From Erythrobacter sp. (GTDB taxonomy: Bacteria; Pseudomonadota; Alphaproteobacteria; Sphingomonadales; Sphingomonadaceae), in assembly GCF_030066995.1 (NCBI RefSeq), contig NZ_JASJAP010000001.1, positions 789,230 through 853,229 of the forward strand: a stretch of 64,000 bases of DNA, written 5' to 3'. Numbering within the stretch: the first letter of the stretch is position 1; each line of letters starts with the position of its first letter. A program made the position numbers and the translations under genes. The notes beneath the pieces were generated by a model. That model was not told the DNA's origin and did no database searches. It was given only the letters and a program-made list of their open reading frames with translations. Positions 17,603-30,159 of the stretch are shown piece by piece.

Positions 17603-17649
17603 ATGGTGGACGCACTAGGGTTCGAACCTAGGACCCGCTGATTAAGAGT
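17603..17649 (-). repeat. attL: duplicated 3' part of tRNA-Lys
   Basis: 47 bp identical to 30083-30129. Read on the - strand it covers the anticodon loop through the T arm, acceptor strand and CCA, but the 5' half of the tRNA is missing, so this copy cannot be a working tRNA. The match stops exactly at the anticodon loop. Confidence 0.9.
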
Positions 17650-17770: not shown

Positions 17771-17787
17771 CTTACAATGCTCTTACA
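17771..17787. promoter_or_regulatory. Candidate integrase arm-type sites, left end
   Basis: Two CTTACA copies start at 17771 and 17782, 11 bp apart, that is one helical turn. The same pair with the same spacing and orientation occurs at 30001-30017 at the other island end. They overlap the upstream ATG (17777) of the integrase reading frame, so binding here would also block integrase expression. Confidence 0.55.
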
Positions 17788-17797
17788 GGAAACGCTC

Positions 17798-19108
17798 ATG
17801 CCCAAGCTCAAGCTCACCAAGACCAATATCGACCGGGTACGCAAGACCGGGGCAAAGACCGAATTCTATTGGGACACAGAGACCAAGGGTTTCGGCCTCC
17901 GAGTAACGGCTTCGGGCGCTGCCAGCTTCATCGTGCAAGGTGTGGTCAGGGGTATGGGCAAAGAGGTGCGCATGACCATCGGCACCTATGGCGCTTGGAC
18001 CGTCGATCAGGCCCGCCGCAAAGCAGAGCAGTACAAGCATCAATTTGAGGACGGCATAAATCCGCGTGAAGCAGCGAAAGCCGATGCCGCCATGCGGGTA
18101 ACGCTTCGGGAGGTGCTGGAGGCTTATGTCACGCGACCGGGCAAGCTGAAAACTGGCACCGCTGCCGAATACACGCGATTGGTGGAGCAGGCCCTGAGTG
18201 CATGGCTAGATAAGCCGATTGCTGCCATTACGCGAGACATGGTGCAGGCGCGGCACCGGGAGCTTGTCGAGGGCGGATTAAGTGGCCAGCGCGGCGCACC
18301 AGCCAGCGCAAACTCGGTGATGGTCACGCTGCGCATCCTTATCAACTTCGCCAACCGCCAATACCGCCGCCTAGATGGCAGTCCGCTGATGACGCACAAT
18401 CCGGTTGAGGTGCTGAAAGACCATTGGGCACCAATTGGATCGCGCACCGACCGCTATATTGAGCGCAACAAGGTCGGCGAGGTTTGGAACGCGCTTCATG
18501 CGGCACGCGAGACGGCTCGGACGCGCGATCAGGTTGCAGGCTTCGATCTGACTTTGTTCGCCATGCTGACCGGAGCAAGGCGCAGCGAGATGACCACACT
18601 GACATGGGATCGGGTCACTATCGACGATGAGAACCCTCGCAATTGCTGCTGGTATCTGGATGACCGCAAGCGTGGGGACCCTATCTGGCTTCCGCTGTCT
18701 TCGCAGGCGGTCGCCCTGCTCAAATCGCGTCAGGTTAACAATAACGGGGAAGGCGAGGGCAGTCCCTATGTGTTTCCGACTTGGAGCAAGACAGGCCATA
18801 TCACCGATGCGCGTGCTCCGATGGAGCTAGTCAGCGAATTGGTTGGAAAACATCTAAGCCTGCACGACCTCCGACGCACCTTTACCAACATAGCGATGCG
18901 CGATTGCCTGATTGAGAAGTTCCGGACTGACCTGCTCACAGGGCACAAGCCCGCTCAAGAAGACGTCACATCGCGCAACTACCTTGACCTTGCGCGTTTG
19001 GATTGGCTTCAGCCTGAGGTGCAAAAGATTGGTGGCTGGATTGAAAGCGAGGGCAAGATAGCTGCAGCCAAGGCAAGCGGGGCAAATGTGGTGGTGCTGC
19101 GCGGGTGA
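17798..19108 (+). CDS. P4-type tyrosine recombinase/integrase
   Basis: A 436-residue phage-type integrase from ATG 17798 (an in-frame ATG at 17777 is also possible but overlaps the repeat sites). N-terminal arm-binding domain of the DUF4102 type: TKTNIDRVRKTGAKTEFYWDTETKGFGLRV. Core-binding domain about 100-200. Catalytic residues: Arg in LTGARRSEMTTLTW, HxxR in LSLHDLRRTF, His in LLTGHKP and Tyr in SRNYLDLARL. It integrates the island into the tRNA-Lys 3' end. It lies next to the truncated tRNA copy and points into the element. Confidence 0.95.
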   Translation: MPKLKLTKTNIDRVRKTGAKTEFYWDTETKGFGLRVTASGAASFIVQGVVRGMGKEVRMTIGTYGAWTVDQARRKAEQYKHQFEDGINPREAAKADAAMRVTLREVLEAYVTRPGKLKTGTAAEYTRLVEQALSAWLDKPIAAITRDMVQARHRELVEGGLSGQRGAPASANSVMVTLRILINFANRQYRRLDGSPLMTHNPVEVLKDHWAPIGSRTDRYIERNKVGEVWNALHAARETARTRDQVAGFDLTLFAMLTGARRSEMTTLTWDRVTIDDENPRNCCWYLDDRKRGDPIWLPLSSQAVALLKSRQVNNNGEGEGSPYVFPTWSKTGHITDARAPMELVSELVGKHLSLHDLRRTFTNIAMRDCLIEKFRTDLLTGHKPAQEDVTSRNYLDLARLDWLQPEVQKIGGWIESEGKIAAAKASGANVVVLRG

Positions 19109-19316: not shown

Positions 19317-19691
19317 ATGACTACCTTGAGTGGCGATGCAAAAGAGGTGATTTATCGAAATCAACTCGTCTCGATTGCATTGAAGCAGGGCTACAACGCA
19401 TATTTGCCGGTCTACGACAGCGGTGTAGACCTTATACTGCATCGGGAAGAGGATCGCGATACGAAGCTTGTTCAGCAAAAGGCACGCTGGACGATCGACA
19501 AGAAGTATATAGGTCGGGACATATGGATCGCATTTCCCGATGGGGAACAGTGGTACTTGGTGCCCCACGATGAACTGCTGATACTCGGAAAACGCCACAC
19601 CAAAACGCAAAGCTGGGACAAAGGCCTATATAGCAAGTCGCCACTGAGCAAGCAGGACAAGGAGCAGCTAGCTCAATATCTGTTTGGATGA
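19317..19691 (+). CDS. Small PD-(D/E)XK-nuclease-like protein
   Basis: A 124-residue protein. The order LVSIALKQGYNAYLPVYDSGVDLILHREEDRDTKLVQQKAR (shown here only as a segment pattern: helix, Asp in GVDLIL, strand, then Q-x-K in VQQKA) matches the D...(E/Q)xK core of PD-(D/E)XK folds, with the length of Hjc- or group I-intron-type nucleases. The C-terminal half (DIWIAFPDGEQWYLVPHDELL) fits the extra strands of that fold. Orphan gene between integrase and excisionase. A nuclease role is a structural guess from motif order. Confidence 0.5.
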   Translation: MTTLSGDAKEVIYRNQLVSIALKQGYNAYLPVYDSGVDLILHREEDRDTKLVQQKARWTIDKKYIGRDIWIAFPDGEQWYLVPHDELLILGKRHTKTQSWDKGLYSKSPLSKQDKEQLAQYLFG

Positions 19692-19837
19692 CGTCCTCGC
19701 TCTAAAAAACGGCTAAATCTTCTTTCAATTTTTTGTTACTTTATGTAGTCTCATCCAAGCCTTAGGTACATAACCAGAGGCGCCTATCGAGCTTCGTTAT
19801 TGAAGCCTTTCACCCCAAGAACCTGCTCTGGGTAAAC

Positions 19838-19856
19838 CGCAGGCTTATCGCCTGCG
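19838..19856. other. Hairpin upstream of excisionase gene
   Basis: CGCAGGC and GCCTGCG arms (7 bp) around a TTATC loop, ending about 40 bp before the excisionase ATG. No T-tract follows, so not a clear terminator; it may be an operator or leader structure. Confidence 0.35.
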
Positions 19857-19894
19857 TGACCCCCTGTGGCGTGCAGGCACAGTTGGGTGCTCCA

Positions 19895-20248
19895 ATGGAC
19901 AAATTACTCACTACCAAAGAAGCTGCGCGCATCTTAGGGATCGCGCCGAAAACTCTCCGAATGTGGCGACTAGCCGGCAAAGGGCCATGTTATTTGAAGC
20001 TTGGCGCGACGCCCCAAGCATCTGTGCGATATGACCACACAGCCCTACGAGCTTGGCTTGCAGAGCGACAGTTTTCGAGCACTTCAGCCGTTTCAGTCGG
20101 TACTTCACCCAAGCCAAGAGAGCGGCAATTGACTGGACTGAATGCCCCGAAAACTCGCCCGGCAAAATCGTGCTGCGGGATTGACGGGCCAGATGGAGTG
20201 CAGAAGCCGAGATCCGGGGTGTGCCCGAGGGAGATACGGCGTGGTTGA
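19895..20248 (+). CDS. AlpA/MerR-fold excisionase-like DNA-binding protein
   Basis: A 117-residue protein. MDKLLTTKEAARILGIAPKTLRMWRLAGKGPCYLKLG is a standard winged helix-turn-helix of the AlpA/Xis type, with SVRYDHTALRAWLAER completing the wing. The C-terminal 50 residues are basic and low in structure. ATG at 19895 was chosen because the homology begins there. The end overlaps the GTG start of the next gene by 8 bp. It likely helps excision or represses the integrase. Confidence 0.8.
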   Translation: MDKLLTTKEAARILGIAPKTLRMWRLAGKGPCYLKLGATPQASVRYDHTALRAWLAERQFSSTSAVSVGTSPKPRERQLTGLNAPKTRPAKSCCGIDGPDGVQKPRSGVCPREIRRG

Positions 20249-21722
20249 TCTGCGATTCCTCCATGAGAAGACACCAGCTGAGATCGCTGCAGAAGTTCAA
20301 CAAGAGGAGGCAAAATTGGTGCGGGCGGCGCTTGCGCAGCAGTCTTCCACCCAAAAAGCCCATGCAACCGGAAACCCTCTCAATGCTGATTGCCAGCTTG
20401 CATTCCCCCCAGGTTTCACTGGGCTGATTGCACGCTTTGTCTATGACCAAGCACCTCGTCCGGTGGCCGAGGTAGCAATTGTTGCGGCTCTGGGCGCGAT
20501 GGCTGGGATTGCAGGAAGATCATGGTGCATATCGGATACTGGGCTGAATCTCTTTGTTATCCTTGTCGCGCGCTCGGCGATAGGGAAGGAAGCGATGCAT
20601 AGCGGCATAACGATGCTGGTCCGCGCAGCTTCCTCACAATACCCCCAGGTCGCTAACGCCTTCGATTTTAGCGATTATGCCTCCGGACCTGCGCTTGTGA
20701 AAGCCTGTGCTCAAAGGCCCTGCTTTGTGAATGTGTCGAGTGAAATTGGACACAAATTCTTGGCTATGGCGAAGGATCGCGAACAAGCGGTGCGTAGCTA
20801 TCGGAAGGCGTTGACCGATCTATATTCGAAATCGGGACCACACAGCATCGCGGGCGGGATAACCTATAGCAACAGGGATGAGAACGCTGCTTCGGTGCAT
20901 GGCGTGGCGTTCAGCCTAATAGGAGAGACGACGCCAACTAATTTCTACGAGTCGATCACATCGGCCATGATGGGCGATGGCTTTATGTCCCGGTTCTGCG
21001 TCATTGATTACACCGGCGAGCGCCCTGAGGAGAACCGAGAACGCCTAAAGGAGCCCCACCCTGAATTAGTCGCTCACTTTGTTGAAATAGCGAGGCAGGC
21101 CGACTTGCTCAGCTCTAAAGAGAACTTCATGCAAGTCATCGTCGATACGAATGCGCAAACCCTACTGGATCAATTCTCGCTCGAATGTGACCAACATATT
21201 AGGGCTGCAGGCGATGATGAGGGGAGAAGGCAACTCTGGAACAGAGCCCATCTCAAGGTCCTTCGTGTCTCTGCCTTACTAGCGGTGAGCGACTACCCAG
21301 CGGCACCGACAGTCAATTTGAAACAAGTTGAATGGGCGATCACGCTAATCAGACACGGCATTTCGGCCTTCGAACATCGCATTCGTGCTGGCGATGTTGG
21401 TGAGGGCACGGATGGTGGGCGTGAGCAGAAGGTGCTGGATCTTTGCAAAGAGTTTCTGTTCTTACCTGCCGGCAAGATTCCAGGTTGGCTCAAGCACGCA
21501 GGCAAAATGCAGCAAGCGGCCATCATCCCACGCAAGTACCTTCAGCAGCGAACGCAGCGTCTTGCCGCGTTTGAAAAGCACAGACTTGGTCATACCGCCG
21601 CTCTCAACTTGGCTATTAAGACTGCGATCACGAACGGCAATCTAATGGAAGTCAACAAAAGCAAAGCGGCTGAGTTGTATGGCTATTCCGGGCAGGCCTA
21701 TAGGCTGCTGAGTTCCAACTGA
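20241..21722 (+). CDS. DUF3987-like protein (replication/primase-helicase type suspected)
   Basis: About 493 residues from GTG 20241, which has GAGGGAGAT at good distance; an in-frame ATG at 20142 would overlap the excisionase gene by over 100 bp. The centre reads FVYDQAPRPVAEVAIVAALGAMAGIAGR, then a Walker-A-like SAIGKEAMHSGI, GETTPTNFYESI and GFMSRFCVIDYTG, the layout of DUF3987 proteins found in satellites and islands. The glycine loop is imperfect, so ATPase activity is uncertain. Coupled translation with the excisionase supports a role in island maintenance or replication. Confidence 0.6.
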   Translation: MVDLRFLHEKTPAEIAAEVQQEEAKLVRAALAQQSSTQKAHATGNPLNADCQLAFPPGFTGLIARFVYDQAPRPVAEVAIVAALGAMAGIAGRSWCISDTGLNLFVILVARSAIGKEAMHSGITMLVRAASSQYPQVANAFDFSDYASGPALVKACAQRPCFVNVSSEIGHKFLAMAKDREQAVRSYRKALTDLYSKSGPHSIAGGITYSNRDENAASVHGVAFSLIGETTPTNFYESITSAMMGDGFMSRFCVIDYTGERPEENRERLKEPHPELVAHFVEIARQADLLSSKENFMQVIVDTNAQTLLDQFSLECDQHIRAAGDDEGRRQLWNRAHLKVLRVSALLAVSDYPAAPTVNLKQVEWAITLIRHGISAFEHRIRAGDVGEGTDGGREQKVLDLCKEFLFLPAGKIPGWLKHAGKMQQAAIIPRKYLQQRTQRLAAFEKHRLGHTAALNLAIKTAITNGNLMEVNKSKAAELYGYSGQAYRLLSSN

Positions 21723-21985
21723 GTTATGACATGGCGGGGCTACCAGTGTGACTTAGCTAGCCACGCAAGCCCCGCCAGTTCACAATTTACAGATGAATGT
21801 AGCCACAATTAGCGTTGGGGTGGCTAGCGCTGCAAACTGCAGAAAATCAACATACTTAGTACTGCAAGTAAGGAAAGTTAGCGCGTTAGTCTGGGCTGCC
21901 TAGGAGGAATTGTGTCGGGCTCGAATGCGCGCGCTTTGCTGGGCTGCATAGTGAACGGGGCTAACTGCTAACATGCTTACTTGGT

Positions 21986-22684
21986 CTAAGCGCTATTGGG
22001 CTTTGTTCTTTCGAGGTCGGCATCATTGGCTTCGACCCATTCTTCTAATTTTACAATTAGTTCAGACCAAACTGTGTTGTACTCATGGTAGAAGGTCTCG
22101 ATGCAAAACATCATCTCGTCCAGATGTCGTCCCCCGAGGTTCTCCATCCAAAGATTTGAGAAAGTGGTCTCGTACTCATCATAGTCAGTTTTTGAGTAAC
22201 CACACATTAGCCCCTCGTAGTTTGGATGGGTGCTCTCTGACAGGCCCGTGTATAGCTTCATGATGCCGGGGTATCGCTTGTCGCATTTCCCTAATACGGT
22301 CAGAATATTGATTGCTACGGGCATCGCATCGTTGTTGCGCGACCCCAGCAAAAGCACGGCAGTCTTTTCTGAGAAAGTATGGAAGTCTACCTTTCCATCG
22401 AGCACATCTTGCATCAGCATATTTAGGAAGGTGAGCGTCGCGAGTGTTTCAAGCCCACTTCTCAGTAGTGTTCGGGCACCAAGTCCATGGCCCTGCTTGT
22501 AAAGTGCATACGATTGGACCAGCACATCATGCTCGCGCCATAGGGTGAGTTCCCTTAGCATCCATACCCGATAAAGGGATTTCCATTTATATGCGATTGC
22601 GTTCCGGGAAATGAGCCCGGCGAGAGGAATACTCTGAAATAGTGATCCACCCCAGTTGGCTAGATTTTCTTCAACTACGTCCAT
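21986..22684 (-). CDS. DUF5677-like hypothetical protein
   Basis: A 232-residue helical protein on the strand opposite to its neighbours. ALYKQGHGLGARTLLRSGLETLATLTFL and MKLYTGLSESTHPNYEG recall the DUF5677 family, whose helical-bundle form has been compared with HEPN proteins. No HEPN R-x4-6-H motif is evident. Flanked by noncoding stretches of about 260 and 245 bp in which I see no further gene. Codon use is AT-richer than the chromosome. Function unknown. Confidence 0.5.
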   Translation of the reverse strand: MDVVEENLANWGGSLFQSIPLAGLISRNAIAYKWKSLYRVWMLRELTLWREHDVLVQSYALYKQGHGLGARTLLRSGLETLATLTFLNMLMQDVLDGKVDFHTFSEKTAVLLLGSRNNDAMPVAINILTVLGKCDKRYPGIMKLYTGLSESTHPNYEGLMCGYSKTDYDEYETTFSNLWMENLGGRHLDEMMFCIETFYHEYNTVWSELIVKLEEWVEANDADLERTKPNSA

Positions 22685-22930
22685 CAGTGCTCACAAATAG
22701 ACCTATGCAATTGTGGTCATCAAGACGCGATTGAGCCGACCAACAAATATCGAATTAGTGGGTCATTGCGCCTTACTCAGACCTAATGCGCTGATATATT
22801 TGATTTCTGTTGCGGACCTTCTGGCGACTTTCTTATGCGGTAAGGCATGTGTATCCCCCGTCACTGAAAGTCAGCGTTCAATGCAGCAAGAATTTGATCT
22901 GTGTCTCTTGTTTCAAACGGACGCCGGGTC

Positions 22931-23422
22931 ATGACGGTGCAAAGCGCTCCGCCGTGGCAAACTGGCAAGGTGACCGTTGAACGGGCTTCAACGGAGACGA
23001 AGCGGCCGGCAGGAAATCCTAACTGGTACCCCGGTATGAGGAGTCCGAACCCGGCAGGTCGCCCAAAGGGCTCCAGCGCCCGAACAAAGCTAGTCGAGCG
23101 TATGCTTGAGGATGCGGACGGGGTTATTGATGCTGTTGTGGCTAAGGCGCTTGAGGGTGATGTGGGTGCGGCGGCCCTCATCCTGGGGCGTATTGCGCCA
23201 GCGATTAAGGCACAAATGGAAAGGGTGGAGTTTGCCCTCGACCCAGATGCATCCACCGGTGACCAGCTTGCACAGGTGCTCGCTGCCGTGGCCGGAGGCG
23301 TGCTCGCACCCGATGCGGGGCGTCAGATCATCGAGAGTGTGAAGGTCCTGTCGGACGTGCGCGTGGCAGAAGAGTTAGAAGCTAGAATAGAGGCTCTTGA
23401 GAGTTGCCATGCTCTTAGGTGA
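22931..23422 (+). CDS. DUF5681 domain protein
   Basis: A 163-residue protein; ATG 22931 chosen over a GTG at 22901. GNPNWYPGMRSPNPAGRPKGSSARTKLVERML is the DUF5681 signature (NPAGRPKGS), a domain also found in phage small-terminase-like proteins. The remainder is helical and acidic. No terminase large subunit is nearby, so packaging is unlikely; DNA binding is plausible from the basic N-terminus. Confidence 0.6.
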   Translation: MTVQSAPPWQTGKVTVERASTETKRPAGNPNWYPGMRSPNPAGRPKGSSARTKLVERMLEDADGVIDAVVAKALEGDVGAAALILGRIAPAIKAQMERVEFALDPDASTGDQLAQVLAAVAGGVLAPDAGRQIIESVKVLSDVRVAEELEARIEALESCHALR

Positions 23423-23498
23423 TCGCTCGTCGGATAGGAGATGCTCGGCCTTTGGCGAAAGAGACCTGAGTGGCTTCTTGGCATCGTGTGTGCGTTGA

Positions 23499-23702
23499 AT
23501 GCAGACGCGAGCTTTGAAAAGACGATTACGACGCTTAGAGGCGGCCACTTCGCCGACACCATCCCCCATTGTTTCTTGGTGCGGTTCGATGGACACATGG
23601 ATTGATGCCTACATAGTCCCGAGCATCAAAGCGGGAAAAGTTTGTCCCAGAGAGATGGCTGATGTTGTGGGCGCAGTAAGGTCTTGGGAGAAGTTCATGT
23701 AG
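23499..23702 (+). CDS. Small hypothetical protein
   Basis: A 67-residue reading frame with a basic start (MQTRALKRRLRRLEAAT) and a tryptophan-containing middle (VSWCGSMDTWIDAYIV). No family recognised. Its position 76 bp after the DUF5681 gene and same orientation suggest one transcript. Could be spurious. Confidence 0.4.
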   Translation: MQTRALKRRLRRLEAATSPTPSPIVSWCGSMDTWIDAYIVPSIKAGKVCPREMADVVGAVRSWEKFM

Positions 23703-23784
23703 GTGCCTGTCCAAAAGTCAGGTTTGTGCGCTATTCTTGGGACTGAAACCTAATTCGAACACTCAATCCTGTCTGAGGTAGTCA

Positions 23785-24837
23785 ATGGATATTCTTCTTT
23801 CGTCCAACAGTCGTGGAGGATATTCTCAGAGCCTCGTCGATCTTCTCGCCAAGCCCGTTGGCTTCAGTCACCAGTTTCGATACGCGCTCGATTGGATCGA
23901 CGGTGGGATCAAGAACCGCATAGGAGAAGCGACATACCACGATGCTCAAGAAGCACTCATACTATTTGTCGATCAGAAGGATACGACACTAACTCCTGTT
24001 CTCTTTCCTATTCGTTTTGCCAAAATTGTGGGTGTCCACGAACTGGGGTCAACCGTCACTTTAACTCTCGAGCTAGGTGAATTCTGCAAGACCGATGGGC
24101 TTTCAGCTTTCAACTCGGCAATTCGGGCGCTTCCGTTGGCACTGCCGGACTACAACGACCAGCACATCATCGAAGGTAGATACTGGCTGTTTGGTGGGGT
24201 TGGAGCTTCGAGTTTAGTTGAGGAGGGGGGAAGCCTCGGTGCTTGGGAGGGCGTAATCAATGGGCTTAGCGAGACACCCAACTTCAACGATGAAGTTCCA
24301 TTCTATCGTTTCACCGAGCTAAGGGACTCGAAGACTGCAGAGCCAGTTTCTCCAATGGTCGCCGATGGCCGTCTGAGCTTCGAATTGCGGGCAGGACGAA
24401 AGTACGAAATCGAGGTGTACCATTTTCACCCTAGGAAGGACTTTCCAGACTGCACACTAAGGTTGGCAGATGAGGATGATGGCATCCGCTTTCTGAATGG
24501 GAGCAATCGGGTGCTAGACACACGTTATGATCGGATTGTGTTTCGCTTCAAGACGATCAGAAAGATACTGGGCACATCGACTGATCTGTCTTTTCAACGC
24601 GTCGAAACTGGAACTGACAAACTGGTGTGGCAAGACTTCCAAATGGGAATCGAGATCAAACCGTCATGGGGTTGGGTCATCGCTTACATAGCAATCGTGG
24701 CAATCGGTTTTGCAGCGCCGTTTATTGTCAGGAGTTACAGCGACCCAAATAACAATGTGCCTGTAATCATCGCTGCGGCCATTGCTGGCCTGATCGTGGG
24801 CTTGGTCACGATCGCAAAAGAAAAACTGAGTTTATAG
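23785..24837 (+). CDS. Hypothetical membrane-anchored protein
   Basis: A 350-residue protein of unknown family. The first about 290 residues are soluble with mixed alpha/beta content. Two hydrophobic helices close the protein (WGWVIAYIAIVAIGFAAPF and VPVIIAAAIAGLIVGLVTIA), so it is anchored by its C-terminus with a short periplasmic or cytoplasmic loop. This large-domain-plus-tail layout is common in island cargo, including effectors, but no effector motif is visible. Convergent with the small gene ending at 24844. Confidence 0.6.
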   Translation: MDILLSSNSRGGYSQSLVDLLAKPVGFSHQFRYALDWIDGGIKNRIGEATYHDAQEALILFVDQKDTTLTPVLFPIRFAKIVGVHELGSTVTLTLELGEFCKTDGLSAFNSAIRALPLALPDYNDQHIIEGRYWLFGGVGASSLVEEGGSLGAWEGVINGLSETPNFNDEVPFYRFTELRDSKTAEPVSPMVADGRLSFELRAGRKYEIEVYHFHPRKDFPDCTLRLADEDDGIRFLNGSNRVLDTRYDRIVFRFKTIRKILGTSTDLSFQRVETGTDKLVWQDFQMGIEIKPSWGWVIAYIAIVAIGFAAPFIVRSYSDPNNNVPVIIAAAIAGLIVGLVTIAKEKLSL

Positions 24838-24843
24838 AGTTAC

Positions 24844-25089
24844 TCAAGTAACGAAATGGGGCTCCCCGTCGCCAGCTTCCCACTTCAAGTGGACCCAACC
24901 TAAAGGCACGTAGTGAGAAACACCGGATGCATCAAAGATACGATGACCGTTATCGCTGACGTGGAGTTTTAGTGGGTTCTCAATTCGCACGGTCTGCCCG
25001 TCCGGGAACCTGTATTCGCGCCATCGCTCACTTGAGATGTCTTCAAAACTCAAGCTCGATGAGTTCCGAAATTGTATGACTTCTGCCAT
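24844..25089 (-). CDS. Small hypothetical protein paired with GIY-YIG gene
   Basis: An 81-residue protein beginning MAEVIQFRNSSSLSFEDIS and ending EAGDGEPHFVT; mostly beta-type sequence (WREYRFPDGQTVRIENPLKL). No family recognised. Start at 25089 has AGGA just upstream; an in-frame ATG at 25173 would overlap the GIY-YIG stop (TGATG) and would give a 109-residue form. Either way the two genes form one - strand unit. Confidence 0.55.
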   Translation of the reverse strand: MAEVIQFRNSSSLSFEDISSERWREYRFPDGQTVRIENPLKLHVSDNGHRIFDASGVSHYVPLGWVHLKWEAGDGEPHFVT

Positions 25090-25172
25090 CGATCCTGCAC
25101 CTTTGTTCACGCTGCGTTCCACAATTGAGCAGGTATTGATTGTTGTCAACAGCTTGCGGCCAATAGTCCGCA

Positions 25173-25541
25173 TCAATCTTCCGCTTGCGTTTCGCCCTTC
25201 AGAAGCACGCGAATGTCTTCATGAATGCCTTGCCCAATCTCAGTGGTCGTTCGGTTCAGATCGGCTGGTGGCTTCACATTGAGCAATCCGCCAAACTGCT
25301 GGTTCCAATAACCTTCATACATATCTAGGTCGGCAGGGATTATATCGTCCTGTAGCACATGGTAGCGGACCTCACTGTCGTTGCGCCATTCCTCGCGGAC
25401 CCATTCGAAAAGAGCCCCCGGTTCCTTGTCGAGTGCTTTAGTGACCGTCAAATCGAGGCGCTTCTGTGCTGAATATTCGGTTTGACCGACATACTGGATA
25501 TGTCCCTTTCTCGTAGAATAGAGGCCGTAGATTTCGCCCAT
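25173..25541 (-). CDS. GIY-YIG-fold nuclease-like protein
   Basis: A 122-residue protein. The N-terminus IYGLYSTRKGHIQYVGQTEYSAQKRL is the GIY-YIG core (GLY and YVG signature strands, conserved Arg after it), and DMYEGYWNQQFGGLLNVKPP carries the expected late Glu and the Asn-containing end. The fold occurs in UvrC, homing and restriction nucleases. It is transcribed away from the ATPase/DruA operon, sharing a 204-bp divergent region with it. Target unknown. Confidence 0.75.
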   Translation of the reverse strand: MGEIYGLYSTRKGHIQYVGQTEYSAQKRLDLTVTKALDKEPGALFEWVREEWRNDSEVRYHVLQDDIIPADLDMYEGYWNQQFGGLLNVKPPADLNRTTTEIGQGIHEDIRVLLKGETQAED

Positions 25542-25677
25542 TTCTAATCCTTGGTGTGCGTTCCCTCCAACTATGGTGAAGGGGGGGTTAACAATCAGAC
25601 TTCAAGAGCATACACTGATAGTCAAGGAGGTTCGCTCTGGGGGTTAAATACTCCTGGCAAAACAGGCGGACTGGATC

Positions 25678-25694
25678 CAACGTTCGAAACGTTG
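25678..25694. promoter_or_regulatory. Palindrome before the HTH-ATPase-DruA operon
   Basis: CAACGTTCGAAACGTTG: 7-bp arms around CGA. A second, imperfect inverted repeat (AGGCCTCT ... AGAGCCT, one bulge) follows at 25699-25716. Both lie within 70 bp upstream of the sigma-like gene, in the divergent control region. Likely operator or leader structure. Confidence 0.5.
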
Positions 25695-25745
25695 ACTTAG
25701 GCCTCTTGCAGAGCCTCCTCGAACACTAGTCGAAGGAGACCTGCC

Positions 25746-26105
25746 ATGGCTAACCCCCTGGACAGCCATATCTACTGCTCGCCTTATTTGAGCGTAACGT
25801 CGCTCGATCAACTTCTGGACGTGCCCGGCGAGGATGGACGTCCTTTCCAAATCCCTGATTATGCTCCTACACCTGATATTCAGGTGGCCAAGGATGCTGC
25901 CGGGGAAGAAGTGAATACTGCCGTCGAAAACCTTCCTCCTCGTCAGCGTGAGGTGATCCGGTCAATCTTCTTTTCGGACCATACCGTCACCCAGACGGCC
26001 AAGGCGCTCGAGATCAGCGCATCTGCGGTCGTTAAGCTGCGCAAGAAAGCCCTCAAGCGCTTGGCTACGATCCTCATCCCTCAACGTGACGCCCTTTTGG
26101 CGTGA
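25746..26105 (+). CDS. Sigma-70 region-4-like HTH protein
   Basis: A 119-residue protein. The last about 55 residues, VENLPPRQREVIRSIFFSDHTVTQTAKALEISASAVVKLRKKALKRL (split by the eye into helix, turn, recognition helix), match region 4 of ECF-type sigma factors. The first 60 residues lack a region 2, so it cannot act as a complete sigma factor; it may be a repressor, adaptor or operon activator. AAGGAGACC precedes ATG. Its stop overlaps a possible GTG start of the ATPase gene (GTGA). Confidence 0.75.
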   Translation: MANPLDSHIYCSPYLSVTSLDQLLDVPGEDGRPFQIPDYAPTPDIQVAKDAAGEEVNTAVENLPPRQREVIRSIFFSDHTVTQTAKALEISASAVVKLRKKALKRLATILIPQRDALLA

Positions 26106-26134
26106 TAAGCAAATTTCAGATTCGGAGAACAAAC

Positions 26135-27907
26135 ATGACTACCTCTGCACTTCAGCAACAAAGGAAGTACGTCGAAGAACTCAAGCGCAAGAAGTTCAAT
26201 TTTGGTCTTACCGTGGGAGATGCATTCGTCCGCGGTATCCGTGATATTGGATACAAGCACACGGGAACTGCGCTCGACGAGCAGATCGATAATGGTTACC
26301 AGGCCGGCGCAGACCAAATCCATGTGATTTTTGGATATGGCGGCAGCACATCCCAGAAGAAGCCGACTGAAATCGCGGTGCTAGACAATGGCCACGGCAT
26401 GGAACCTGAGATGGTTCGCGCTGCGGTTACTTGGGGCGGTACTCACAGAGAGGGCGACCGAACTGGCTTTGGTCGCTACGGGTATGGCCTGCCGAGTTCG
26501 GCTATTAGCCAAGGTACGAAATACACCGTATTCTCAAAGACGAGCGATGGTGAACTCAACGCTGTAACAATCGACGTCGAGGATATTTCCGAAGGACGTA
26601 ACACCAACAAGGATGGTCTGATCGTCGTGCCTGAAGCGCGCAAGGCCAAACTCCCGGCCTTTGTGAGTAAATACATCGACGAGCAACTCGGTGGTGATTG
26701 GGACCACGGAACTATCGTAGTCATGGAAAAACTGGACCGCATCGAGCGGACCACCACCAGTGGGTTGCATAAGTTTCTTATGGAACACTTTGGAGTAACT
26801 TACCACAAGCTGCGGGGTGACTTCGACATTGTGGTCAACGGAGAGCTTGTTCAACCTATCGATCCGTTGTTCATTACGCCGGGATATCGATACTATGACT
26901 TGGATGAGCAACGCGCAGAAGCGTTGGAGCCGATTGTAATCGATGTGAAAGACCCAAAGACCAAGGCGGTGAAGGGCAAGATCACCGTCCGAATGTCATA
27001 CATGCGTCCAGATTTCGCTTCTTTAGACAAGATGAAGAAGGCAACCGCGAATAATGCGAATGATCGCTTTTCTATCCTTCGGAAATTCAACGGTTTTATC
27101 TTCTCTCGAAATGGACGGATAATTGATGTCGTCACGCGAAATCCATTAACGTCTTTCCAGACGAATGATCGCTACATCAAGGTGGAAATCGATTTCCCAG
27201 CTGAGCTCGATGAGCATTTCAATATCTCGACTTCGAAGCAACGCGTTGATGTGTCCGAGCAAATCTGGGATAGGCTTCGCGAGGCTGGACTAAGTAAGGC
27301 AATTGATCATCTTCGCGCGAAATTCAAAGAGAAGAATGCAGAGCTCAAAAATATTCGGGAGCAGGATAAGAACAAGAAAAGAGCTTCTGAGGAAGCTATG
27401 GAGCGCGCGGCAGAACTCGCTGATCCACGCCCGAACAAGGACGATGCAGAGCGTCGAGAGAAGCGAGGTGAAGAAGGCCTAGAGCGTGAAGCAGCGCGGC
27501 GTTCTAGCGAGACTGGTGTCGACCCTGACACGACGAGGCGGCAACTCGAACTCGAAATAAAAGATCGAGGGTACAAGGTAGCTTTCGACAATTCGGCTGG
27601 AGCGCCTATCTTTCGGGTTGAACAAATCGGTGGAGCCAAAGCTCTTTTTATCAACAAAGCATCCCGTTTCTTCCAGGAAGTACATTCTGGTCCCAAGAGT
27701 ACGCCTGATGTTCGGGCGGCATTGGAACTGCTTCTATTCTCGATTGGTGACCGGATTCTGGACACAAAGGACACGCAAAGAGACTGGTATCAATTTGAAA
27801 TTGGAGAATGGTCCCGTAAACTGGAGCTTTCATTGGGCCAGTTGCAATTGCAGGTCACCAGCAATGAAGAAGAAAATGATGAGGAAGACACGAAGGCAGC
27901 CGCTTAG
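26135..27907 (+). CDS. GHKL (Hsp90/MutL/MORC-type) ATPase
   Basis: A 590-residue protein. The Bergerat ATP fold is at the N-terminus: N box ALDEQIDNGYQAG (about 46-58, catalytic Glu and Asn), DNGHGM (about 84-89), and the lid GFGRYGYGLPSSA (about 111-123). The middle resembles the MutL/MORC transducer domain; about 385-460 is highly charged and probably coiled coil. This looks closer to bacterial MORC-like ATPases than to HtpG. ATG 26135 has GGAG 8 bp upstream; GTG 26102 overlaps the previous stop and is an alternative. ATP-driven dimer closure on DNA or a partner is the family behaviour. Confidence 0.85.
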   Translation: MTTSALQQQRKYVEELKRKKFNFGLTVGDAFVRGIRDIGYKHTGTALDEQIDNGYQAGADQIHVIFGYGGSTSQKKPTEIAVLDNGHGMEPEMVRAAVTWGGTHREGDRTGFGRYGYGLPSSAISQGTKYTVFSKTSDGELNAVTIDVEDISEGRNTNKDGLIVVPEARKAKLPAFVSKYIDEQLGGDWDHGTIVVMEKLDRIERTTTSGLHKFLMEHFGVTYHKLRGDFDIVVNGELVQPIDPLFITPGYRYYDLDEQRAEALEPIVIDVKDPKTKAVKGKITVRMSYMRPDFASLDKMKKATANNANDRFSILRKFNGFIFSRNGRIIDVVTRNPLTSFQTNDRYIKVEIDFPAELDEHFNISTSKQRVDVSEQIWDRLREAGLSKAIDHLRAKFKEKNAELKNIREQDKNKKRASEEAMERAAELADPRPNKDDAERREKRGEEGLEREAARRSSETGVDPDTTRRQLELEIKDRGYKVAFDNSAGAPIFRVEQIGGAKALFINKASRFFQEVHSGPKSTPDVRAALELLLFSIGDRILDTKDTQRDWYQFEIGEWSRKLELSLGQLQLQVTSNEEENDEEDTKAAA

Positions 27908-27935
27908 ATTCGTAGCCACAATCGTGCAATAACAA

Positions 27936-27961
27936 CCGGGCCCCCCTAACGGGGGGCCCGG
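27936..27961. terminator. Strong hairpin between ATPase and DruA genes
   Basis: Perfect 11-bp GC-only stem (CCGGGCCCCCC and complement) with a TAAC loop, 28 bp after the ATPase stop. Followed by ATTTGATT rather than a T-run, so it may be a partial terminator, RNA processing site or mRNA stabiliser that sets the ATPase:DruA ratio. It lies 35 bp before the DruA ATG. Confidence 0.6.
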
Positions 27962-27996
27962 ATTTGATTCTGGCAACGAAAAAAGGGGACCGATCG

Positions 27997-29982
27997 ATGG
28001 CTTCAGAGGTGCGCAAAGTGACGCCCTATTTGCCGCCGGCGATCATGTCCAAGCTATGTGCATATATCCGCACCAAGCAGGAGCAAGGTGAATCGTTGCG
28101 AGCGTCATTAAGAAGCTTGGACGTGACATGGCGGAATGAGCCTTGGAGCCTGCAACTGAGAGCAACGGCCTTGGTGCTTGCAGATTTGCTTGATCAGGGA
28201 TGGAGCATTTCTGCTTTGACCCGATCGATTGAACTTGTTCCTCCTGGTCTTAAGACCGGCACCGAGACAGCCGAGGATGCGAAGCTCAGACTGAGGCATG
28301 CATTGCAAGTTGGTCGAAAGCGTCAGTTGCAAGACCCGAGTGTGCAGAAGTTCTTGGATCGTGTGATGGCAAAGCGCTGGCGTGGAGGCGTAAAGTCTTC
28401 AGTGCTCGATCTTGTTGACGATGGCGCTGAATTGGCGGCTTTGCTCCGCACAACTCGCGACAAGCCGTTTGAAGCTACTTTGAAGGACCTGCGTAAAATT
28501 GTGCGCCCATCCCTTGAAGTGGTCGAAGAAGGAGCGAGGTGTGCGACCACCGGGCTTCGGCTGATGGATATCTGGCGGTTCTTTAGGCACACCTGGTCCC
28601 TCGAGTATCGCTCGATTCCAGGGAGGCAGTTGCCGATTTTGATCCGGAATGACGCTAGACCAAATCGACCGGTGATAGGAATTGCTCAGCTCGCAAGCCC
28701 GATCCTAAGAACCAAGCCACGTGACAATTGGCTTCAATGGACGCCAGAGCCCTTCATTGACGCACTTCAGAGAGGCGTGTGGCCTATTGATGATACTCTT
28801 GCCGCTCTGGCGGATAGGGTCGGTCAAAGCGCTAGTGAGATCCGCTTCGATGACCTGGCTGACATTGACGAGATAGCGAACCCCACAGAGAACCTGATCT
28901 TTAGGCTAGAGCAAAAAGCTGCAGGGGCAGCTGCCAAACGTGAGAACCAGTTGAAAGCGGCTTACGCTGCGTCGAAAGGGCAAGTCCAATCCCAGAAAGA
29001 TGCCGCACATCAGGGCTGGTCCGAAGCTGATTGGCATAAAGCGTCGGGGGAGGTGCTTTATGTTCGCAAGCGCGCGGAAACGCTTGCTAAGCTAATGAAG
29101 GCAAAAATTACCTTTGAGAGTCTCGACCGAAAGCTTCGTGGCGATGATCTGTTAGACCATTTTCTGGCTGAGAGGCAGGGCGCCCAAGCCATCTCAGTAG
29201 CGCTTCAGGAGTTCAGAAAGGCAGGATTGGCTAGCCAGATTGCTGACTTGTCGGTCTGCGGAGCGGTTGCGCCTTACAACGCTCTCTTAGGTGGAAAACT
29301 TGTGGCCCTCTTAGCGGCCTCGCGCGAGGCACATGAGGCTTGGAGATCGAAGTACCAAGACCAGGTAAGCATTATCAGCTCGCAAATGGCTGGTAGGCCG
29401 ATCAGTCGTCCGGCGGATTTGAAGGTGCTGACGACAACCTCGTTGTACGGACGTGGTTCGAGCCAATACAATCGACTGAGACTGCAAGCCGGAACATTCC
29501 GCGGCTTGAAGGACGGATTGGAATGGGAGAAGCTTGAGGAGACCACGGCGGGATACGGTACCGTTCACATGGGTGCTGAAACCGTACAAAGGCTAAGACA
29601 ATTCTCAGAAGACTCATACGGCGCGCGCAGGATTAACAATCGGTTTGGTGAAGGCACCAGCCCACGGTTGCGCCAAGTTCGTGAAGGTCTGGATGCACTA
29701 GGCATCGAAAGCGATGACGTACTGAACCACGCTACGCCAAGGCTTTTCTATGCTTGCGCGTTGAACGAACAAGCAAAAGACCAACTGATTGGGTTGTCTT
29801 CGCGAAAACCAGCCAAGCAAGCAAGTGTCGATCTGATAGCCGATGCTTGGCGTAGACGCTGGCTCGCTTCACGTATCCAATCTGATGATGTTTTGATGCA
29901 AGTCGAGTCAAGAAATGCACAGAATGTCAGAAGCGACCTCCTCCCAGCAGAAGATGATGGTCAGTTCATAATGCCACTCTGA
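27997..29982 (+). CDS. DruA-family (DUF4338) protein
   Basis: A 661-residue protein, longer than typical DUF4338 proteins (about 300-450). Family blocks in order: WRFFRHTWSLEYRSI, GRQLPILI (209-216), RPVIGIAQLASP, RDNWLQW (242-248), then after a charged, probably coiled-coil insert (about 290-370) CGAVAPYNALLGGKLVALL (421-439), TTTSLYGRGSSQYNRLRL (479-496) and GYGTVHM (519-525). DUF4338 is the DruA component of Druantia type I defence, but no DruB-E are here. ATG 27997 with GGGGAC upstream chosen over TTG 27964. Partner is inferred to be the ATPase just upstream. Confidence 0.75.
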   Translation: MASEVRKVTPYLPPAIMSKLCAYIRTKQEQGESLRASLRSLDVTWRNEPWSLQLRATALVLADLLDQGWSISALTRSIELVPPGLKTGTETAEDAKLRLRHALQVGRKRQLQDPSVQKFLDRVMAKRWRGGVKSSVLDLVDDGAELAALLRTTRDKPFEATLKDLRKIVRPSLEVVEEGARCATTGLRLMDIWRFFRHTWSLEYRSIPGRQLPILIRNDARPNRPVIGIAQLASPILRTKPRDNWLQWTPEPFIDALQRGVWPIDDTLAALADRVGQSASEIRFDDLADIDEIANPTENLIFRLEQKAAGAAAKRENQLKAAYAASKGQVQSQKDAAHQGWSEADWHKASGEVLYVRKRAETLAKLMKAKITFESLDRKLRGDDLLDHFLAERQGAQAISVALQEFRKAGLASQIADLSVCGAVAPYNALLGGKLVALLAASREAHEAWRSKYQDQVSIISSQMAGRPISRPADLKVLTTTSLYGRGSSQYNRLRLQAGTFRGLKDGLEWEKLEETTAGYGTVHMGAETVQRLRQFSEDSYGARRINNRFGEGTSPRLRQVREGLDALGIESDDVLNHATPRLFYACALNEQAKDQLIGLSSRKPAKQASVDLIADAWRRRWLASRIQSDDVLMQVESRNAQNVRSDLLPAEDDGQFIMPL

Positions 29983-30082: not shown

Positions 30083-30159
<77 letters not shown>

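What the first reader, a model, noticed from the sequence alone, without database searches (positions are those of the whole stretch)
25746..29982. Three-gene HTH / GHKL ATPase / DruA module at the end of a tRNA island: candidate defence system
Seen: a sigma-region-4-like protein without region 2, a MORC-type ATPase with an intact Bergerat fold and a DUF4338 (DruA) protein, in one + strand run. Known: DruA belongs to Druantia type I, where it works with DruB-D and the DruE helicase; MORC-like GHKL ATPases occur in bacterial conflict systems. No DruE is present in the island. Inference: this is a compact DruA system in which a GHKL ATPase replaces the helicase, controlled by the small HTH protein.
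Basis: partly seen in the sequence, partly recalled or inferred. Interest (0 to 1): 0.85.

Follow-up and report, generated by a model that had tools for sequence, protein, structure and literature searches.

The report
MORC ATPase–DruA defence module
A small mobile element inserted in a tRNA gene carries a regulator-like gene, a DNA-clamp-type ATPase related to animal MORC proteins, and the defence protein DruA; the last two travel together across distant bacteria, so they are probably an overlooked core of a family of virus-defence systems.

Summary
The three genes are there as described, at the end of a 12.5-kb integrative element bounded by exact 47-bp repeats, one in tRNA-Lys. The ATPase has a MORC-type GHKL+S5 fold. 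The long DruA is most like GNAT acyltransferases, as published for its DUF4338 domain.

The ATPase-DruA pair is a real unit: DruA is the next gene in 33 of 40 loci found with the ATPase alone. In draws of 396 and 385 genomes the five genomes with a long DruA are the five with a strong ATPase match. A sigma-factor-like gene lies in the cluster in 14 of 38 pair loci.

"The ATPase replaces the helicase" fails: 19 of 31 pair loci also have DruE in the genome, and one viral contig has ATPase-DruA-c3-DruD-DruE in one direction. In 12 loci, the window and a 99%-complete relative no DruE was found.

Best reading: a MORC-GNAT module that stands alone or is built into Druantia-type-I-like systems; PADLOC's Druantia models do not match the ATPase. 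Defence is likely but untested; the mechanism is inferred.

The parts
17603..17649 (.). attL: 47-bp copy of the 3' half of tRNA-Lys
   Evidence: exact repeat of 30083-30129
17777..19108 (+). tyrosine integrase of the element
   Evidence: Pfam Phage_integrase 5.3e-8, Arm-DNA-bind_3 8.3e-16
25746..26105 (+). sigma-region-4-like HTH protein, 119 aa, no region 2
   Evidence: Pfam Sigma70_r4 1.1e-9; iterated search links it to sigma-like genes beside the ATPase in L014, L015, L037
26135..27907 (+). MORC-type GHKL ATPase, 590 aa (ORF open from 26102)
27936..27961 (.). perfect 11-bp all-GC inverted repeat (hairpin) in the ATPase-DruA spacer
   Evidence: stem length reached in 0 of 300 shuffles, MFE z -6.2
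27997..29982 (+). long DruA, 661 aa (ORF open from 27964): N-terminal part, GNAT-like core within about 167-607, interrupted by a long helical stretch (about 240-405)
30083..30129 (.). attR inside tRNA-Lys
30084..30159 (-). tRNA-Lys (CTT), integration site
   Evidence: ARAGORN

Best explanation
The locus is a compact MORC-DruA module, carried as cargo by a tRNA-Lys-integrated element: a MORC-type GHKL ATPase and a long DruA with a GNAT-like core, plus a sigma-region-4-like gene that is most likely an autoregulator. Shown by computation: the pair is a co-inherited unit, the ATPase motifs are intact, DruA has a GNAT-like fold, and the pair is found both alone and inside Druantia-type-I-like clusters. 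Inferred: it protects the host, and so the element, against phages or rival elements. Proposed working: ATP closes a MORC dimer round invading DNA, as MORC and MutL are thought to do; this recruits or activates DruA on that DNA; the GNAT-like part is either the effector (transfer of an acyl group to a protein or nucleic acid) or a recognition scaffold. DruE, where present, would add unwinding or degradation but is not needed for the core.
For: DruA is the next gene downstream of the ATPase in 33 of 40 loci found with the ATPase alone (31 long, 2 short). Random draws: 5 of 5 genomes with long DruA have a strong ATPase match and 5 of 5 the reverse (396 + 385 genomes). Identity distances of the two proteins correlate at r 0.95 over 38 loci, 0 of 2000 permutations as high (relatedness is not removed). 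Invariant ATPase residues, MORC/SMCHD1 fold, GNAT-like fold. Defence neighbours in relatives: DruE, DruD, TIR-APAZ plus short Argonaute beside L036, SspF/G/H-like genes after long DruA in haloarchaeal L082. Prior work: MORC/paraMORC ATPases mostly sit with helicases and nucleases in restriction systems (PMC2292703, sections 4-6).
Confidence: 0.68

Rival explanations
1. One reading: a compact Druantia in which the GHKL ATPase has taken the place of the DruE helicase.
For: No DruE found in the window's genome, in G233, or for 12 of 31 pair loci.
Against: DruE is in the genome for 19 of 31 pair loci, in several gene orders; MORC-type ATPases are held to be clamps, not translocases (established knowledge, recalled).
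Confidence: 0.08
2. A remnant: the window lost DruE and the other Druantia genes and is decaying or only regulatory.
For: The sister clade of the window's clade holds 18 of 21 rows with DruE; DruE presence changes at least 5 times on the tree (quick method, long branches).
Against: All three genes are intact; close DruA homologues at 68-81% identity are nearly all of full length, as are most ATPases; loci without DruE recur in distant lineages (Calidithermus, Parvularcula, Pelagibacteraceae, Cyclobacteriaceae; some of these assemblies are incomplete).
Confidence: 0.1
3. A tool of the mobile element itself: superinfection exclusion or maintenance, using a MORC clamp and a GNAT-like partner, not host immunity in general.
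For: Sits in an integrative element; pair also on plasmids and on IMG/VR contigs (7 DruA loci; ATPase beside DruA in 4 of 7); the same tRNA site holds another element in G163.
Against: The pair also lies with known defence genes. How often integrases lie near it was not counted, and the two functions overlap in practice.
Confidence: 0.14

Closest known systems
Druantia type I (DruABCDE)
   Same: DruA family (PDLC00001, 723.6 bits); in relatives DruD and DruE1 stand near the pair
   Different: No DruB, C or D among the 7 window proteins scanned, no DruE in the genome; DruA is the long form and is paired with a MORC-type ATPase that PADLOC-DB 2.0.0 matches to no Druantia model
Prokaryotic MORC / paraMORC restriction-associated ATPases (Iyer 2008, PMC2292703, sections 4-6 read)
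   Same: GHKL motifs, S5 domain with invariant lysine, life beside defence genes
   Different: Strict MORC motif fails at one position in the window (Ser); partner here is DruA, not a helicase or nuclease; DruA or DUF4338 is not named in the sections read
DndF fused to DUF4338 GNAT (Iyer 2024, PMC10853773, passages)
   Same: Same DUF4338 domain in a counter-invader system; L100 and L101 carry DruA-like proteins of 1190 and 1198 aa followed by genes of about 495 and 1580 aa, an order like that of DruA-SspF-SspG-SspH in L082
   Different: Window DruA is separate and its partner is a MORC-type ATPase, not DndF
MZA system (MzaB ATPase)
   Same: Related GHKL domain (MzaB 57.9 bits)
   Different: Far under the curated cut-off of 850; no other Mza protein among the 7 scanned

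Membership tests
Druantia type I | DruA present | tested here: met
   723.6 bits, nearly full model
Druantia type I | DruE helicase in the locus | tested here: not met
   none in island or genome
Druantia type I | DruB, DruC, DruD in the locus | tested here: not met
   none among 7 window proteins scanned (21986-29982); other element ORFs and the rest of the genome not searched for them
Prokaryotic MORC | GHKL ATP-binding motifs and S5 domain with basic residue | tested here: met
Prokaryotic MORC | GhXhhpXXRhl motif in S5 (Iyer 2008) | tested here: not met
   window GFIFSRNGRII, position 5 is Ser; strict pattern in 13 of 63 rows (one of them, P0237, elsewhere in the protein), relaxed at position 5 in 43 of 63
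GNAT superfamily (DruA core) | GNAT fold | tested here: met
GNAT superfamily (DruA core) | binds and transfers an acyl group from acyl-CoA | not testable with these tools
   needs biochemistry; P426, Y427, G433 and K434 are invariant in 70 diverse DruA rows
Sigma-70 factor | region 4 | tested here: met
Sigma-70 factor | region 2 | tested here: not met
   no region-2 match at E<=1; region 2 is matched in the sigma-like genes of L002 and L036
MZA system | MzaB above curated cut-off | tested here: not met
   57.9 against 850
IS-borne DUF4338 protein | multi-copy, transposase-like spread | tested here: not met
   one copy in the genome; one match in each hit genome (L036 and L040 show two copies in one draft genome)

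The most novel reading that the evidence does not exclude
A MORC-type clamp ATPase is the obligate partner of bacterial long DruA and forms, with a GNAT-like DruA and a sigma-like regulator, a helicase-free immune system of its own. Larger Druantia-like systems are this core plus interchangeable helicase sets, and the MORC proteins that silence transposons and viruses in animals and plants share ancestry with this class of bacterial DNA clamps.
Probability: 0.4. Interest if true: 0.78.

Novelty: new variant of a known kind. Interest (0 to 1): 0.6.

Why it matters
As far as I know (recalled) DruA has no settled function. Tying it to a MORC-type ATPase, with a GNAT-like fold, gives two testable enzymatic steps and a much smaller system (two or three genes) than five-gene Druantia I in which to test them. 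It also suggests that a widely used detection library (PADLOC-DB 2.0.0) misses a conserved component next to DruA, and gives a bacterial setting in which the DNA clamping proposed for MORC proteins may act directly against invaders.

Tried and rejected
IS/transposase reading of DruA: rejected, single copy, GNAT-like fold. Mza membership: rejected by cut-off. DruE elsewhere in the genome acting in trans: not found. Phage records: no DruA match, two weak ATPase matches. ATPase alignment in viral contigs: no confirmed relative, though the DruA scan found 7 loci, 4 of them with the ATPase beside DruA, so the patterns were too narrow. Phylum draw of 388 genomes with the single ATPase sequence at E<=1e-80: only the window. 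The window's left flank had no match in the five same-genus loci fetched, so no empty site was shown; G163 has a second 47-bp copy 17.5 kb away with other cargo. c3 (about 950-1040 aa) matched nothing in PADLOC (5 copies tried) or Pfam (one copy). Promoter scan: 3 found, 3.3 expected; terminators 6 found, 5.1 expected: uninformative as counts. Papers: no paper holds both DruA and 'GHKL ATPase'; none of the 15 papers listed holds both MORC and Druantia (34 held two of its three terms; 19 were not listed); the listings (20 of 47 shown) show no title or abstract start on DruA with a MORC ATPase. Most listed papers were not opened (PMC8011034 on paraMORC, for one). The library is open-licence PMC only.

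Full report
WHAT IS THERE. By homologues and ribosome-site-like sequence the ATPase starts at 26135 and DruA at 27997. The island is an integrative element of about 12.5 kb: a 47-bp stretch of tRNA-Lys is repeated exactly at 17603 and 30083, with a tyrosine integrase just inside the left repeat. G+C is about 0.58-0.64 before it and 0.49-0.59 inside, 0.49-0.56 from 19 kb on. The same tRNA in one of five same-genus genomes looked at (G163) has a second exact 47-bp copy 17.5 kb away, with no match there to the window's integrase, ATPase or DruA: the site is used by other elements too.

CO-OCCURRENCE. The ATPase alignment found 40 loci in the species genomes. DruA is the next gene in 33 of 40: 31 long (L028 cut by the contig end; L035 with a small overlapping ORF between) and 2 short (L009, L010); one more is cut off before the place (L037); six have another gene next (L005, L012, L013, L023, L030, L031). 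L030's genome has a long DruA with an ATPase on another contig. In 396 genomes of the order and 385 of the class, drawn without regard to either gene, five have a long DruA and the same five a strong ATPase match (E below 1e-100). Against that: G164, G362, G532 and G604 have weaker ATPase relatives (1e-42 to 1e-31) without a long DruA, and five genomes have a short DruA (about 376-415 aa) without a strong ATPase match. Distances of the two proteins correlate at 0.95 over 38 loci, none of 2000 permutations as high; near-copies are among them.

SIGMA-LIKE GENE. Pfam finds region 4 in the gene upstream of the ATPase in L014 and L015, region 2 (and weak region 4) in L036, region 2 in L002. Iterated searches link the window gene with L014, L015 and L037, and a second group (L003, L004, L007, L032, L038, L070, L050, L051, L002) that also reaches L015; L004's member has no Pfam match of its own and L050's only a weak HTH match. 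Counting L040, the near-copy of L036, 14 of 38 pair loci have one in the cluster: upstream of the ATPase, or after DruA (L050, L051 on the other strand; L002 behind a second ATPase). A 278-aa gene after DruA in L039 (3.9e-17, window seed only) and the marginal L033 (2.8e-4) are not counted. The large protein search found only two relatives of the window gene: it evolves fast.

HELICASE. DruE1 (1528 and 2072 bits) lies in or near many pair loci: 19 of 31 genome loci have it in the genome. In 13 it is inside the fetched locus (L008 as a fragment); for L006, L007, L014, L022 and L038 the genome search places it 12-25 kb from the pair (the contig was checked by its length for L006 and L014, and inferred from coordinates for the rest); L032 has only fragments in a draft genome. 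Orders differ: convergent c6-DruE, co-directional DruE-NERD helicase, c3-DruD-DruE (L004, L011), DruE-NERD-c5-Snf2-c3. Viral contig L099 has ATPase-DruA-c3-DruD-DruE in one direction. Short-DruA loci L075 and L077 are DruA-c3-DruD-DruE without the ATPase. No DruE was found for L002, L003, L015, L016, L028, L033-L036, L039-L041 (12 loci, 11 genomes, several of them incomplete single-cell or metagenome assemblies), the window, or G233 (one contig, 99% complete). On a DruA tree (quick method, long branches present) the window's clade of 11 is sister to a clade of 21, 18 of them with DruE; DruE presence changes at least 5 times. Hence the ATPase is not a stand-in for DruE: the pair is the constant part and the helicase the variable part.

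OTHER PARTNERS. Five haloarchaeal plasmids (L082-L084, L086, L088; DruA in two ORFs in L086) have long DruA and no ATPase hit; in L082 the following genes match SspF, SspG and SspH, L083 and L084 have the same order with DruE divergent, L088 the same sizes downstream. Viral contigs L100 and L101 have DruA-like proteins of 1190 and 1198 aa before genes of about 495 and 1580 aa; that these are DruA-SspF fusions is my inference from length and order. A distant ATPase relative in Treponema plasmid L054 lies with a DUF4007 gene, an aminotransferase class V gene, a helicase and a phospholipase D gene; the link to phosphorothioate systems is recalled. In L036 the pair is followed by TIR-APAZ and short Argonaute genes.

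MECHANISM. Iyer et al. 2008 (PMC2292703, sections 4-6 read) propose that prokaryotic MORCs loop DNA between recognition and cleavage sites. I extend that: ATP-driven clamping marks invading DNA and DruA acts as partner, effector or scaffold. The sigma-like gene lacks region 2, so it is unlikely to start transcription by itself; a repressor or autoregulator is the simplest reading. A GC hairpin in the ATPase-DruA spacer (27936-27961) is far beyond chance here (0 of 300 shuffles, z -6.2); in 10 of 33 loci the 80 bases after an ATPase stop hold a stem with p<0.05, but in L036 that is the first of two ATPases and in L015, L033 and L041 the stem overlaps the DruA frame. It may set the ratio of the two proteins.

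NOVELTY. PADLOC knows the long DruA but matches its ATPase partner only to MzaB. Eight literature searches listed no report of the pair; the library lacks most subscription papers, and most listed papers were not opened, so this is not proof. Papers seen as passages only: PMC8565338, PMC12458937, PMC7251935, PMC12137116, PMC10853773.

Noticed in passing
window 27936-27961: Perfect 11-bp all-GC hairpin between ATPase and DruA; stems with p<0.05 after the ATPase stop in 10 of 33 loci, not in L017-L019, L021, L024-L026, L029.
   Followed up: partly
L113 2385-2431 and 19909-19955 (G163): Two exact 47-bp att copies 17.5 kb apart at the same tRNA-Lys of a same-genus genome: a different element in the same site.
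   Followed up: partly
window 19317-25541: Rest of the element: HTH_17 gene, DUF3987 gene, DUF5677 match below cut-off, DUF5681 gene, and several proteins without a Pfam family; resembles small satellite-like elements (recalled).
   Followed up: no
L036 and L040: Pair with a second GHKL gene on two contigs of one Cyclobacteriaceae draft genome; in L036 followed by TIR-APAZ and short Argonaute genes.
   Followed up: partly
L004, L006, L007, L011, L016, L032, L038, L050, L051, L070: A second, longer GHKL ATPase (about 640-670 aa) lies upstream of the pair.
   Followed up: no
L022 4822-7728, L075 9633-12497 and kin (c3): Family of about 950-1040 aa beside DruA, DruD or DruE with no PADLOC match in 5 copies tried; the Pfam scan of the L022 copy was empty.
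   Followed up: partly
L082 10035-17707: Haloarchaeal long DruA followed by SspF/G/H-like genes, with DruE divergent upstream.
   Followed up: partly
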